Assembly: GCA_016933395.1 (NCBI GenBank)
Contig: JAFGBA010000273.1
Coordinates: 1 to 35,237, forward strand
Origin: Sedimentisphaerales bacterium
GTDB lineage: Bacteria > Planctomycetota > Phycisphaerae > Sedimentisphaerales > SM23-30
DNA length: 35,237 nucleotides
Direction: 5' to 3'
This document shows positions 3,133-31,919 of the stretch, in pieces; within the stretch, counting starts at the first letter, position 1, and every line of letters begins with the position of its first letter. Made by a program: the position numbers and the translations under genes. Below the pieces are notes generated by a model, which saw only the letters and a list, made by a program, of their open reading frames with translations, made no database searches and was not told the origin of the DNA.

Positions 3133-5295
3133 TTGGCTGATTATATGGTAAAGAAGTGTCTCATCATGAGCCTTATCATAATTACACCGAATTGGGCTGC
3201 TGTGCCGGATTACATCTTTGATGTTAGCGCGACCCGGCAAACCGTTATGGGATTCGGTGCGCAGGTATGGTCTGGAGATACGAATGTCAACGCGATGTTG
3301 AGTAATCTAAACTGCAAATATGTTCGCATGGAAATCGGTCCCAATTGGAATGAAGTTACAGACCCCCCGCCGACTGATTCCAGCAGGGCTTCGTTCGACG
3401 CTTATTTTGCCGATCACATTGGCGCCGCCAGGGTAAACAATCTGGCCGCTTCGTGGGCCATGGCGGATAGTCTTGGAATAGAAATAATCGCGAATCAGTT
3501 TCACGCCCCCAATGCCTGGCTTGACGGCGGAAATCAGTTGCTTTCTGCGTACCATCAGGATTTTGCCTTGCTTTGGGGGGCGACGGCGGCGTTTCTTGAC
3601 GGTCATGGTATGCGGCCGGATTACGTGGATTTATTGAATGAACCGGAAGGTCACTGGAATGTGTATGTGCCGCCGGCGGATTACAATACCGTCGTTAAAC
3701 TGGTTCGATACGAGCTCGACGACCGGGGATTTGCCGATGTCGGCATCGTTGGACCGGGTTTGGCCTATCTCGATCATGATGATGGCGGACAAACATGGGT
3801 CAATGCCCTGGATCAGGATGGCGTCGCTTCTCTGGCGGCCTGGAGCACACACGCCTGGGATGAAAGCTTTCAGCCGGATTGCGGTCCTGAATTTTTGGAA
3901 AACCGGTGGATCGATTTCGGAAATGCGATTGCCAATAAGGATCCGGAAGGCTTTATGCCTGTTTTCGTGACTGAGTACATGACCGGCGCGACCACCTTTA
4001 ACGGAATCAGTTATGCGTCACCGGGATCGGCGTCCAGTGGTACGGCCAGCGAAACGGACGCTTTTGCCGTCCGCGTTTTTCAAAATACCCTTTCTTTGTT
4101 GAATTGCGGCGCCAATGCCCTGGTGCTTTGGGAAGCGGCGGATCAATACTGGAGCGGCTCAAGCTGGGGTTTGCTTCGTAGCGCCGCCATGGGCAATACA
4201 CCGCGGCCGGCGTATTACGCCTTGTCCTGTTTGTTGCCTGTTATTCCGGACAATGCCCAGGTGATCGAAAAAAGCTGGACGGATAACGAGGTCATTGCCG
4301 GGGCATTTTGGGAAGGCAATACATTGGTTGCGGCTTTTGCCAACGGAACAACAGGCGTAAAACAGCGGGTGGCTCAGCTTGCGAATATCAACAGCGCCCG
4401 CGTCACCCAGGCCTGGGCTTATGAAGGCGGCAGTGTGGTCGATCGAACCTCGTCCGTTGTCATGGACCAGGACCTCCATCAAGCACTGGTTTCGCTTGAG
4501 CCGGATAGCACGTTGACCGTGGTTTTTTCGATCAATGAATGTTCGGAATCCTTAAACGCTGATTTAAATGGTGATTGCGTCGTTAACCTGATTGATTTTT
4601 CGATTGTATCGAGCAACTGGCTCCAGACGAATTTTGGGCCCTTGCACGTGGTATTGGAAGATTTCGAGAGTTACGCCGACGACGAGGAACTGCTTGATTT
4701 CGGGACCAATGACGGCAATGGCGGCGGCTGGTCGCCCGGTGATTCCACCGCTGTTTTATCCTTGTCCACCACAGAAGTGTACAGCGGCGGCCAGGCCATG
4801 AGGTACGATTACAACAATAGCGCCAGTCCCTATTTTGCCAAGGGCATGCAGTGGTTGGCATGGAGCGCAGGTACGAATGGCGTCGATTTTCGGCCATACG
4901 ACATTCTCTCGATCAGCTTCAAATGCACTGACGCTTCGGGCTATCTGCAGGCGACGCTGGTGGACGGTTGGGGCATCAATAAGGCCGCTATCTTATACAA
5001 CAACATGGCCGTTCTTCCCGAGGGTGAGTGGGTCGAATGGCAGATTGATCTAACGGCGATCCCCGATAGCGCCAAATGGATGGTCGGCCGCGTGGACCTT
5101 TTCATGTTAGATACAAGCGGCACTTATGGCAATTTCGGCACGGTTTATTTCGACGATATCGTACTGGTCGATTCATCGTCGCTGACGGAATGCGATGGAT
5201 TCCAGCCGGGAGATGTAACCGGTGATTGTGAAGTCAACGTGGAGGACCTCAGCGAGATGGCCATAAGCTGGCTGGAATGTGCGTTAATCGAGTAA
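3133..5295 (+). CDS. Secreted glycoside hydrolase, clan GH-A (GH30/GH5-like), with DFESY module and two dockerin-like repeats
   Basis: Signal peptide; QTVMGFGAQVWSGD; likely acid/base in DLLNEPEGHW and nucleophile in FVTEYMTGATTF; C-terminal LEDFESYADD module with dockerin-like repeats on both sides. Confidence 0.75.
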   Translation: MADYMVKKCLIMSLIIITPNWAAVPDYIFDVSATRQTVMGFGAQVWSGDTNVNAMLSNLNCKYVRMEIGPNWNEVTDPPPTDSSRASFDAYFADHIGAARVNNLAASWAMADSLGIEIIANQFHAPNAWLDGGNQLLSAYHQDFALLWGATAAFLDGHGMRPDYVDLLNEPEGHWNVYVPPADYNTVVKLVRYELDDRGFADVGIVGPGLAYLDHDDGGQTWVNALDQDGVASLAAWSTHAWDESFQPDCGPEFLENRWIDFGNAIANKDPEGFMPVFVTEYMTGATTFNGISYASPGSASSGTASETDAFAVRVFQNTLSLLNCGANALVLWEAADQYWSGSSWGLLRSAAMGNTPRPAYYALSCLLPVIPDNAQVIEKSWTDNEVIAGAFWEGNTLVAAFANGTTGVKQRVAQLANINSARVTQAWAYEGGSVVDRTSSVVMDQDLHQALVSLEPDSTLTVVFSINECSESLNADLNGDCVVNLIDFSIVSSNWLQTNFGPLHVVLEDFESYADDEELLDFGTNDGNGGGWSPGDSTAVLSLSTTEVYSGGQAMRYDYNNSASPYFAKGMQWLAWSAGTNGVDFRPYDILSISFKCTDASGYLQATLVDGWGINKAAILYNNMAVLPEGEWVEWQIDLTAIPDSAKWMVGRVDLFMLDTSGTYGNFGTVYFDDIVLVDSSSLTECDGFQPGDVTGDCEVNVEDLSEMAISWLECALIE
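4657..5160 (+). repeat. Copy B of DFESY-module DNA repeat
   Basis: See copy A at 2329-2826. Confidence 0.9.
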
Positions 5296-28776: not shown

Positions 28777-29070
28777 ATGGCAGATCACATGGCTGCGGCG
28801 ATGAATGCGGCCCAGGCCGGTCGCATCATTGCCGATACGGAAGAACCTGTGCGCGACGCCCACGCGGTCTTTCGCCGGCAGGCTTACCAGAAGGCGATTG
28901 ACCTTCTGTCTCGTGCGGGCCAGAAGGCTTTTTCCCCCTCCGACGAACCTGTTCCAGGGGCCGGGGGATGTGCTGTGACGCTGACAATGCCGATAGCCTG
29001 ATGGCCCGTGGTAAGCCTGTATTATTCGAACCTCTGGATGGACTACCGGACCCATCAGCGGGCGGCCTAA
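28777..29070 (+). pseudogene. Degenerate transposase remnant 1 (ISKra4-like, tentative): N-terminal piece joined to C-terminal piece by internal deletion, with frameshift
   Basis: MADHMAAAMNAAQAG...DAHAVFRRQAYQKAIDLLSRAGQKAFSPS, then frame-shifted (CD)ADNADSLMA / LYYSNLWMDYRTHQRAA*, matching the 3' end of remnant 2. Confidence 0.7.
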
Positions 29071-29098
29071 TCCGTTGCCAGAAAAAAGGTCGCTGACC
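28956..29098 (+). repeat. Direct repeat, left copy (transposase 3' end)
   Basis: Aligns with 31776-31919, e.g. tgtattattcgaacctctgga, cagcgggcggcct and gttgccagaaaaaa..ggtcgct. Confidence 0.88.
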
Positions 29099-29214: not shown

Positions 29215-30528
29215 ATGGAGCATTCTGTGCAACTTTATCTTTTTCCCAAAGAAGATGTAACCGCAATAAATGTCAGGAAAAATGGCAACGCCAATAAATT
29301 AAGCGGCGACGATAAACAGTTCCATGATTGGTATCGATTTGTTCTTTCTTTTCCTCCTCATTTAGTCAGAGAATACCTGGTAAAATTTCAACTAACAGAA
29401 AATAACGTTGTTCTTGATCCGTTTTGTGGCACAGGAACAACGCTTGTCGAAGCAAAGCTGCATGGCATACCAAGCATTGGAATCGAAGCGAATGACATGG
29501 CTCACTTTGCATGTTCCGTCAAAGTGGATTGGGATATAGACCCTGATAAACTGATGAAGCACGCCGTTTTGGTGGCAGAGAAGGCGAATCAAATTATCTC
29601 TTCAGAGAAGCGCCTTTCACTAAGAACGTTACCGGAAGAGTCATATACTCTATTATTGAAAGATTCGATTAGCCCCTTGCCTTTACATAAAGCATTGGTG
29701 CTGTTAGAACAACTCGAAAAAAACAAGAACCCATATTTCCGGCGTCACGAATTGCTGGCGCTGGCGAAATCGCTGGTGTTTTCCAGTAGCAACCTGCATT
29801 TCGGTCCTGAAGTCGGCGTACAGCGAAAAAAGAAAACCGATGCGCCCGTTATTGAAAGTTGGCTGGCCGAGGTGCAATATATAGCAGAAGATATACGTCA
29901 TACTCAACACCGCGACACCTTCGCCATGGTTCATCATGCGGATTCACGACAATTGGCGGCGCTTTTAACTCCCCAGAGCATCGACGCGGTTTTTACGTCT
30001 CCGCCTTATCCTAATGAAAAGGATTACACGCGAACCACTCGTCTGGAATCCGTGATGCTTGGTTTTATCAAAGACAAAATGCAACTACGAGCCTTGAAGA
30101 AAAATCTGCTCAGGTCCAATACCCGCAATGTATATAAAGGCGATGACGACGATAAATGGATTGCGGAACATGAAGAGATACAAACGATAGCCGCCGCGAT
30201 AGAAAATCGTAGAATTGCTCTGGGCAAAACATCCGGATTTGAGAAATTATATGGCAAAGTAACCAAGTTGTATTTCGGCGGCATGGCTCGCCATTTGGCC
30301 GAATTGCGGCCGTTTCTCAGACCGGGCGCCTATCTTGGCTATGTGGTGGGCGACCAGGCCTCGTACCTTCAGGTTATGATCCGCACGGGCCGGCTACTTG
30401 CCGACATTGCTCAGTCTTTGGGCTACCAGGTGGTAAGCCTCGACCTGTTTCGAACCCGCCTGGCGACGGCGACAAGAAAACAAATGCGGGAAGAGGTTGT
30501 CGTATTGCAATGGCCTGGTCGCCAATGA
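29215..30528 (+). CDS. Site-specific DNA methyltransferase (N4-cytosine/N6-adenine type)
   Basis: AdoMet motif VLDPFCGTGTTLVEAKLHGIPSIGIEAN; catalytic motif DAVFTSPPYPNEKDYTRTTRLESVML. Confidence 0.88.
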   Translation: MEHSVQLYLFPKEDVTAINVRKNGNANKLSGDDKQFHDWYRFVLSFPPHLVREYLVKFQLTENNVVLDPFCGTGTTLVEAKLHGIPSIGIEANDMAHFACSVKVDWDIDPDKLMKHAVLVAEKANQIISSEKRLSLRTLPEESYTLLLKDSISPLPLHKALVLLEQLEKNKNPYFRRHELLALAKSLVFSSSNLHFGPEVGVQRKKKTDAPVIESWLAEVQYIAEDIRHTQHRDTFAMVHHADSRQLAALLTPQSIDAVFTSPPYPNEKDYTRTTRLESVMLGFIKDKMQLRALKKNLLRSNTRNVYKGDDDDKWIAEHEEIQTIAAAIENRRIALGKTSGFEKLYGKVTKLYFGGMARHLAELRPFLRPGAYLGYVVGDQASYLQVMIRTGRLLADIAQSLGYQVVSLDLFRTRLATATRKQMREEVVVLQWPGRQ

Positions 30529-30540
30529 GGAGGATGTGTT

Positions 30541-31365
30541 ATGGCGAAAAATAGCAATCGGTATTCAAAGCTGATCGCAAAGATATTTGATCAAAACTAC
30601 ACGAAAAGCGCACGGGAAGTAATCTTTCATCGCAAAGATCTGGTTAGCACGGCGGCCGCGCTCGGTATAGAATTGCCCAAGAACCTCGGTGATATTGTTT
30701 ACAGCTTTCGTTATAGAGCCGCTTTACCGGAAACCATTCGCAAACGTGCCCCCAAGGGTTTGGAGTGGGTCATTCGTCCGGTCGGGCAGGCCAAATATAA
30801 GTTTTCCTTAACCGCAATGGCTCGGATACTGCCAAACGCCCTGTTAGCTGAAACGAAAATTCCTGATGCTACGCCGGGTATTATTGCGAAGTATGCGTTC
30901 AACGATGAGCAAGGGCTTTTGGCAAAACTGCGATATAATCGGTTGATAGACATCTTTTCAGGAATTACGTGCTACTCCCTGCAAAATCATTTACGGACAA
31001 CCGTACCGGATATGGGGCAGGTTGAAACAGATGAAATTTACGTAGGAGTGGATCAACGAGGCGCACAGTATGTTTTTCCCGTTCAGGCGAAAGGCGGGAC
31101 GGACCAGCTTGGTATTGTCCAAATCGAACAGGATTTTGCTTTGTGCGCCACGAAATTTCCGCAATTAATTTGTCGTCCGGTGGCGGCACAATTCATGGAA
31201 GATAATTTGATCGCACTTTTCGCTTTCGAAGAGAGTGAAAACGGAGTTGCCATTAGCGATGAAAAACATTACCGTCTTGTTCCGCCTGAACAAATGACCG
31301 ATGAAGATTTAGCCAATTATCGCAACAGAGTAATAAACACAACCAACAAGGTTTCCGGTATTTGA
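30541..31365 (+). CDS. Putative type II restriction endonuclease (PD-(D/E)xK-like)
   Basis: 12 nt after the methyltransferase with its own RBS (gaggagg); VETDEIYVGVDQRGAQYVFPVQAKGGTDQLGIVQIEQD fits an (E)...D...(Q)xK nuclease core. Confidence 0.65.
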   Translation: MAKNSNRYSKLIAKIFDQNYTKSAREVIFHRKDLVSTAAALGIELPKNLGDIVYSFRYRAALPETIRKRAPKGLEWVIRPVGQAKYKFSLTAMARILPNALLAETKIPDATPGIIAKYAFNDEQGLLAKLRYNRLIDIFSGITCYSLQNHLRTTVPDMGQVETDEIYVGVDQRGAQYVFPVQAKGGTDQLGIVQIEQDFALCATKFPQLICRPVAAQFMEDNLIALFAFEESENGVAISDEKHYRLVPPEQMTDEDLANYRNRVINTTNKVSGI

Positions 31366-31377
31366 CAACAGGGTTTA

Positions 31378-31889
31378 GGCGGCAATCAAACTTAGGAAGA
31401 AAAGTGGATCGCCGGTGAATATCGCCGATAACGGCCCATGTTGGATGAGCATATTCTGGACTATTTTCACTTCCGGGATCACGTCATTGTCGCCGCCCAG
31501 GCCCTCTATGGGGAAGGAACCCGCAAGGCTCAGGCGCGGCGGGAAGAGATAACGGGCTATGCCTGAAATCAGGGCTCGCTGGTGATGCTGGATAAGCCGG
31601 CCCCTTATCTCCAGCGTCATCATCGGGGCGTCAAAGGGGAGGCGTTACGCGCCTTGTGGGGGTATGTGGCCAAGCGGATCACCATGACCGATTATCCCCG
31701 CTTCCGTGAAATGGGCTACGATTGCGGCAGTGGCCCCACCGGATCGTTCTGCGGCACTTTGACCGCCCGCCCCTCAAGGGCCGGGGGATACGCTGGGACG
31801 CCGACAACGCCGAGAGCCTGATGGCCCTGGGCAACCTGTATTATTCGAACCTCTGGAAAGACTACTGGACCCAACAGCGGGCGGCCTGA
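31378..31889 (+). pseudogene. Degenerate transposase remnant 2 (ISKra4-like, tentative): N-terminus missing, three in-frame stops and one frameshift
   Basis: GGNQT*EEKWIAGEYRR*RPMLDEHILDYFHFRDHVIVAAQALYGEGTRKAQARREEITGYA*NQGSLVMLDKPAPYLQRHHRGVKGEALRALWGYVAKRITMTDYPRFREMGYDCGSGPTGSFCGTL / RPLKGRGIRWDADNAESLMALGNLYYSNLWKDYWTQQRAA*. Confidence 0.78.
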
Positions 31890-31919
31890 TTAGTTGCCAG
31901 AAAAAAAAGGTCGCTCACC
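31776..31919 (+). repeat. Direct repeat, right copy (transposase 3' end)
   Basis: See left copy 28956-29098. Confidence 0.88.

What the first reader, a model, noticed from the sequence alone, without database searches (positions are those of the whole stretch)
30541..31365. Putative endonuclease of possibly novel family (VETDEIYVGVD...FPVQAKGG)
No restriction enzyme family is recognisable to me from the sequence. Close coupling to the methyltransferase and an E/D...QxK core suggest a PD-(D/E)xK nuclease with Gln in place of the usual D/E. Family, recognition site and activity are unknown.
Basis: partly seen in the sequence, partly recalled or inferred. Interest (0 to 1): 0.6.

Follow-up and report, generated by a model that had tools for sequence, protein, structure and literature searches.

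The report
Type II restriction enzyme, D…QxK core
The window carries an ordinary two-gene bacterial restriction-modification pair whose cutting enzyme belongs to an already catalogued but structurally unsolved family; its relatives are odd in being paired with either of two unrelated DNA methyltransferases.

Summary
The ORF at 30541-31365 is real (274 aa). It follows a methyltransferase (MTase) gene, 29215-30528, after 12 bp that hold a good ribosome-binding site. It is not an unknown family: PADLOC model PDLC03404 (Type II restriction enzyme) matches residues 4-261 at 390 bits. It has no credible Pfam or NCBIfam match and no PDB relative by sequence.

The PD-(D/E)xK reading holds. [quoted passage not shown] Q182 is Q in 90 of 92 homologues and E in the other two, so the Gln does occupy the D/E position.

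In all 91 loci with a detectable partner, the MTase lies upstream on the same strand. The partner is one of two unrelated kinds: an N4/N6-type MTase with an invariant TSPPY motif (as here), or a C5-cytosine MTase (enterobacterial plasmids, prophages). This implies that cytosine is the protected base. Two relatives are single-ORF M-R fusions. Several large phages carry the endonuclease without an adjacent MTase.

The recognition site stays unknown; a test by site avoidance in phage genomes was inconclusive. The pair is horizontally acquired and lies between decayed ISKra4-family remnants. This is a new member of a known kind.

The parts
29215..30528 (+). Modification methyltransferase gene (437 aa), N4/N6 amino-MTase type; most likely N4-cytosine
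   Evidence: ORF; Pfam N6_N4_Mtase 1.2e-12; 41 relatives upstream of R homologues all carry DPFCG[TA]G and TSPPYPNE; AlphaFold pLDDT 86 with Rossmann-MTase matches
29416..29436 (+). MTase motif I (AdoMet site), DPFCGTG
   Evidence: invariant or near-invariant in alignment A5
29998..30009 (+). MTase catalytic motif IV, SPPY
   Evidence: TSPPYPNE invariant in the 42 sequences examined
30527..30534 (+). Ribosome-binding site GAGGAGGA before the endonuclease start, overlapping the MTase stop codon (translational coupling inferred)
   Evidence: read directly from the sequence
30541..31365 (+). Type II restriction endonuclease gene (274 aa), PD-(D/E)xK fold with D...QxK active site
   Evidence: PDLC03404 390 bits; AlphaFold model; conservation
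30907..30909 (+). E123 codon, start of core helix alphaA; possible additional catalytic acid (inferred)
   Evidence: E in 91 of 92 homologues; helix 123-132 in model
31030..31032 (+). D164 codon, beta2, predicted metal-binding Asp
   Evidence: D in 91 of 92 homologues; strand 159-170
31084..31092 (+). Q182-A183-K184 codons, beta3, predicted QxK half of the active site
   Evidence: Q in 90 and E in 2 of 92; K in 91 of 92; strand 176-184
28955..29098 (+). Upstream decayed insertion-sequence 3' end, same orientation as the downstream one
   Evidence: 86% identical to 31775-31919
31438..31919 (+). Downstream decayed ISKra4-family transposase remnant
   Evidence: NCBIfam NF033572 transpos_ISKra4 E=1.2e-11 on 31438-31788 read through stops; 3' end repeated upstream

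Best explanation
This is a two-gene Type II restriction-modification system. The endonuclease is a PD-(D/E)xK nuclease of the PD-QxK subtype. D164 on beta2 and Q182/K184 on beta3 (perhaps with E123) would hold one or two Mg2+ ions and hydrolyse the phosphodiester bond, probably as a homodimer at a short palindrome that contains C. The upstream gene makes an amino-MTase, most likely N4-cytosine, that methylates the same site and protects host DNA; it is translated first and the endonuclease is translationally coupled behind it. The pair spreads horizontally, here between insertion-sequence remnants. Shown: the ORFs, family membership, predicted core fold, conserved residues and gene order. Inferred: cleavage, dimerisation, target base, protection. 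Unknown: the recognition sequence.
For: PADLOC Type II REase HMM over residues 4-261 of the protein (2-259 of 260 model positions), E=1.5e-117. Model at pLDDT 89 with helix 123-132, strands 143-155, 159-170, 176-184, helix 192-205, strand 214-218, the canonical core order. D164/Q182/K184 near invariant, with a natural Q-to-E change at 182 in L090 and L091. MTase upstream on the same strand in 91 of 91 loci where one is detected. Partners either N4/N6-type or C5. C5 partner confirmed by Pfam PF00145. TSPPYPNE invariant in the N4-type partner. Natural in-frame M-R fusions L024 and L089. Sporadic presence in 9 of 98 relatives and 10 of 392 genomes of the phylum, lower GC than the surroundings, and insertion-sequence remnants on both sides point to horizontal gain. 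PD-QXK is a documented subgroup (PMC11347163, PMC3874165).
Against: No solved structure matches the model at E below 1e-3; the best nuclease-like hits (ACE1/Cas4, AdnAB) are weak, with TM-scores near 0.2. No activity data were found. Five phage contigs and one plasmid carry the endonuclease without an adjacent MTase, so an MTase is not an absolute requirement.
Confidence: 0.9

Rival explanations
1. It is a modification-dependent (Type IV, Mrr/MspJI/BisI-like) endonuclease that cuts methylated DNA, and the neighbouring MTase is incidental.
For: D...QxK is the Mrr/BisI-type core (PMC11347163, PMC3874165).
Against: Constant, same-strand coupling to an MTase across more than a dozen phyla, with two MTase types and two in-frame fusions, fits protection rather than targeting. 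No Mrr or other Type IV Pfam match. The PADLOC match is to the Type II REase model.
Confidence: 0.05
2. The locus is a decayed, non-functional remnant of a restriction-modification system.
For: It sits between decayed insertion-sequence remnants, and some relatives are broken (L045, L047, L048, L092).
Against: Both ORFs are full length, start with ATG, keep every conserved residue and a good ribosome-binding site, and are 72-84% identical to the nearest relatives.
Confidence: 0.05
3. The MTase is an N6-adenine enzyme, so the recognition site need not contain a protected cytosine.
For: Pfam N6_N4_Mtase does not separate the two activities, and SPPY occurs in some N6-adenine MTases (general knowledge).
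Against: The motif IV Ser is typical of N4-cytosine MTases (general knowledge), it is invariant here, and the homologous endonucleases are otherwise paired with C5-cytosine MTases.
Confidence: 0.25

Closest known systems
PADLOC PDLC03404 (REase_II, Type II restriction enzyme)
   Same: Full-length match at 390 bits; the same model matches the plasmid, megaplasmid and distant homologues tested.
   Different: Nothing detectable. The model carries no named specificity, and no Pfam or NCBIfam entry or solved structure was found for the family.
Klebsiella/Salmonella/E. coli ColE1-type plasmid restriction-modification pair (e.g. pB1019, NC_019988.1: WP_001584442.1 + WP_032446875.1)
   Same: The endonuclease is 52% identical over 262 aa with the same D...QxK core and the same M-then-R order.
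   Different: The partner is a C5-cytosine MTase, unrelated to the N4/N6-type MTase of the window.
PD-QXK (Mrr-like) nucleases, e.g. the BisI family
   Same: PD-(D/E)xK core with Gln in the D/E position (PMC11347163).
   Different: BisI enzymes require methylated cytosines; the present enzyme has a cognate MTase and no sequence match to Mrr/BisI models or structures.
Type II systems with a fused R-M polypeptide (the engineered RM.Eco29kI, PMC3039593)
   Same: Relatives L024 and L089 read MTase and endonuclease as one ORF of about 710 residues.
   Different: In the window the two genes are separate; the relatives' fusions are natural, with M N-terminal.

Membership tests
PADLOC PDLC03404 Type II REase family | Full-length HMM match | tested here: met
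   389.6 bits, residues 4-261, model 2-259 of 260
[quoted passage not shown]
   order of elements in the AlphaFold model, pLDDT 89
PD-(D/E)xK nuclease superfamily | Asp on beta2 and (D/E/Q)xK on beta3, conserved | tested here: met
   D164 91/92, Q182 90/92 (E in 2), K184 91/92
PD-(D/E)xK nuclease superfamily | significant structural match to a solved member | tested here: inconclusive
   no PDB match at E<1e-3; weak ACE1/Cas4 and AdnAB hits; viral PD-(D/E)XK proteins at about 1e-3 to 1e-2
PD-(D/E)xK nuclease superfamily | active-site residues clustered in space | not testable with these tools
Type II restriction-modification system | endonuclease gene next to a cognate MTase gene | tested here: met
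   MTase 12 bp upstream; 91 of 91 loci with a detected partner have M upstream on the same strand
Type II restriction-modification system | site-specific Mg2+-dependent cleavage of unmethylated DNA, blocked by the MTase | not testable with these tools
   needs biochemistry
Type IV / Mrr modification-dependent nucleases | PD-QXK core | tested here: met
   Q182-x-K184
Type IV / Mrr modification-dependent nucleases | match to Mrr/Type IV family models | tested here: not met
   no such match in Pfam, NCBIfam or PADLOC
Type IV / Mrr modification-dependent nucleases | no cognate MTase | tested here: not met
   constant MTase partner
N4-cytosine DNA methyltransferase (upstream gene) | SPP(Y/F) motif IV and AdoMet motif I | tested here: met
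   TSPPYPNE and DPFCGTG
N4-cytosine DNA methyltransferase (upstream gene) | methylates N4 of cytosine | not testable with these tools
   needs methylome sequencing

The most novel reading that the evidence does not exclude
One restriction-endonuclease lineage has kept its cutting enzyme, and probably a cytosine-containing site, while exchanging its protective partner between two unrelated MTases (N4-type and C5). It has also been fused to its MTase at least once and taken up without an adjacent MTase by large phages.
Probability: 0.55. Interest if true: 0.4.

Novelty: new member of a known kind. Interest (0 to 1): 0.3.

Why it matters
The family occurs in at least a dozen phyla and on small enterobacterial plasmids, including one KPC carbapenemase plasmid, yet no Pfam or NCBIfam model or solved structure was found for it, and it is annotated 'hypothetical protein' or 'endonuclease'. 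Knowing its site would explain a plasmid and prophage barrier to gene transfer and add a usable enzyme. The natural Q-to-E variation at the motif gives a direct test of what Gln does in a PD-QxK active site, and the two partner types let one ask how the same nuclease is blocked by two different cytosine methylations.

Tried and rejected
1) Finding the recognition site through phages that carry the endonuclease without an adjacent MTase. Their genomes do lack whole motifs (CCGG 0 of about 645 expected in the 378-kb phage, CCWGG 0 of about 692 in a 191-kb phage, RGATCY nearly absent in four). 2) Naming a characterised isoschizomer: no PDB relative and no paper found with the motif or the plasmid. 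Guesses from memory (Sau96I, HgiBI, AvaII groups) could not be tested and are not claimed. 3) Foldseek against PDB for the endonuclease gave only weak hits. 5) The Pfam Pathogen_betaC1 and PDB GTP cyclohydrolase matches are noise.

Full report
OBSERVATION. The ORF 30541-31365 (+, ATG, 274 aa) and the quoted peptide are present. The preceding ORF, 29215-30528 (437 aa), ends 12 bp upstream, and a GAGGAGGA ribosome-binding site overlaps its stop codon. M and R have 46.6 and 45.8% GC against 50.8% for the window and 52-55% for neighbouring genes. Both flanks hold decayed insertion-sequence DNA in the same orientation: an ISKra4-family transposase remnant downstream (NF033572, E=1.2e-11) whose 3' end recurs upstream at 86% identity. 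The pair therefore looks like an acquired cassette.

FAMILY. Pfam and NCBIfam give nothing credible and the PDB has no relative by sequence, by single query or by profile. PADLOC has it plainly: PDLC03404, Type II restriction enzyme, 390 bits over residues 4-261. The same model matches the Klebsiella plasmid homologue (451 bits), a Pseudomonas megaplasmid homologue (281 bits) and a remote Sulfitobacter one (115 bits). So the family is catalogued, though without a named specificity.

FOLD AND ACTIVE SITE. AlphaFold on 40 aligned homologues gave pLDDT 89.3 and pTM 0.85, with helix 123-132, strands 143-155, 159-170 and 176-184, helix 192-205 and strand 214-218. This is the PD-(D/E)xK core order. 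D164 falls on the second core strand and Q182-A-K184 at the end of the third. In 92 homologues D164 is kept in 91, K184 in 91, and position 182 is Q in 90 and E in 2 (L090, L091: PTEAK). The exchange of Q for E at exactly this position is the best sequence evidence that it is the D/E of the motif. E123, D122, N133 and Q160 are also nearly invariant. Foldseek found no PDB match at E<1e-3; the most relevant weak ones are Cas4-like ACE1 and AdnAB nucleases. In the viral library several annotated PD-(D/E)XK proteins appear at about 1e-3 to 1e-2. The core is thus assigned with good confidence, while the whole chain resembles no solved structure closely. D-QxK is a known variant: BisI-type enzymes are described as the PD-QXK (Mrr-like) subgroup (PMC11347163), and Type ISP enzymes carry PD-QXK (PMC3874165).

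PARTNERS. Of 92 homologues analysed, 53 have the window's type of MTase and 29 a C5-cytosine MTase directly upstream; 10 have neither. Of these ten, three lie at contig edges (L038, L096, L104), one (L054, remote) has an Eco57I-type methylase gene downstream, one is on a Pseudomonas megaplasmid (L055), and five are phage contigs. In all 91 loci with a detected partner the order is M then R on one strand (some loci are near-duplicates and two are the window itself). The window-type MTase has motif I DPFCG[TA]G and motif IV TSPPYPNE without exception in 42 sequences. The C5 partner matches PF00145 at 2.7e-64. The label changes at least twice on the endonuclease tree as found, but a tree with all N4-type rows as one clade is not rejected (p-AU 0.64), so one partner switch suffices. 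If the site and the protected base were kept across the switch, the target base is cytosine; Ser in motif IV agrees with N4-cytosine (general knowledge). From memory, the PspGI/Ecl18kI/EcoRII group is a precedent for related endonucleases with N4- and C5-type partners; that the endonucleases are related is in PMC4081073, their MTase types were not checked here.

FUSIONS AND COPIES WITHOUT AN ADJACENT MTASE. L024 and L089 read M and R as one ORF of about 710 residues. L048 looks like a deletion joint, not a functional fusion. Phage contigs L077-L079, L081 and L083 (records up to 378,848 bp) encode homologues at 36-43% identity without an adjacent MTase of either type. In L079 and L081 the gene lies in a conserved block with dUTPase-, IF3-, DnaX-, sigma- and clamp-like genes (names from reading the translations). 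Their own genomes ought to lack the recognition site if the enzyme is active and the DNA unmodified, so I counted palindromes. Whole motifs are missing, but the phages avoid dozens of palindromes in general, and a related phage with no detectable copy lacks the same ones, so the site cannot be read from this.

DISTRIBUTION. Homologues occur in 9 of 98 related genomes and 10 of 392 genomes of the same phylum, in more than a dozen phyla and on Klebsiella, Salmonella, Citrobacter, Enterobacter and E. coli small plasmids, one carrying Tn4401/KPC. This is the patchy pattern of mobile restriction-modification systems.

VERDICT. 'Possibly novel family' is not. Activity, site, target base and dimer state were not tested.

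Noticed in passing
L106-L124 (378-kb phage), L125-L134, L135-L144, L145-L147, L184-L189, L190-L209 (400 kb of a 441-kb phage): Large phage genomes in which 16-29 of the 64 six-base palindromes are absent or nearly so, along with short motifs (CCGG 0 of ~645, CCWGG 0 of ~692, GGCC 1 of ~322 expected): extreme restriction-site avoidance.
   Followed up: partly
L079:3812-4726, L081:3974-4714, L077 about 3980-4723, L083 about 3986-4753: Phage-encoded homologues of the restriction endonuclease without an adjacent MTase; in L079/L081 inside a replication/transcription gene block. Possible weapon against host or rival DNA.
   Followed up: partly
L024:312-2459 and L089:151-2277: Natural in-frame fusions of the MTase and the endonuclease into one polypeptide of about 710 residues.
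   Followed up: partly
window 28955-29098 and 31438-31919: Decayed ISKra4-family remnants on both sides of the restriction-modification pair, same orientation; the search of the window's own assembly for the downstream remnant found only these two copies.
   Followed up: yes
L090 and L091 (endonuclease homologues): Divergent homologues with ExK (TEAK) in place of QxK, a natural Q-to-E exchange at the catalytic position.
   Followed up: partly
L054:3743-4657 (Sulfitobacter plasmid): Remote homologue (25% identity) that lost the catalytic Lys (VQMET) and sits before an Eco57I-type methylase gene.
   Followed up: no
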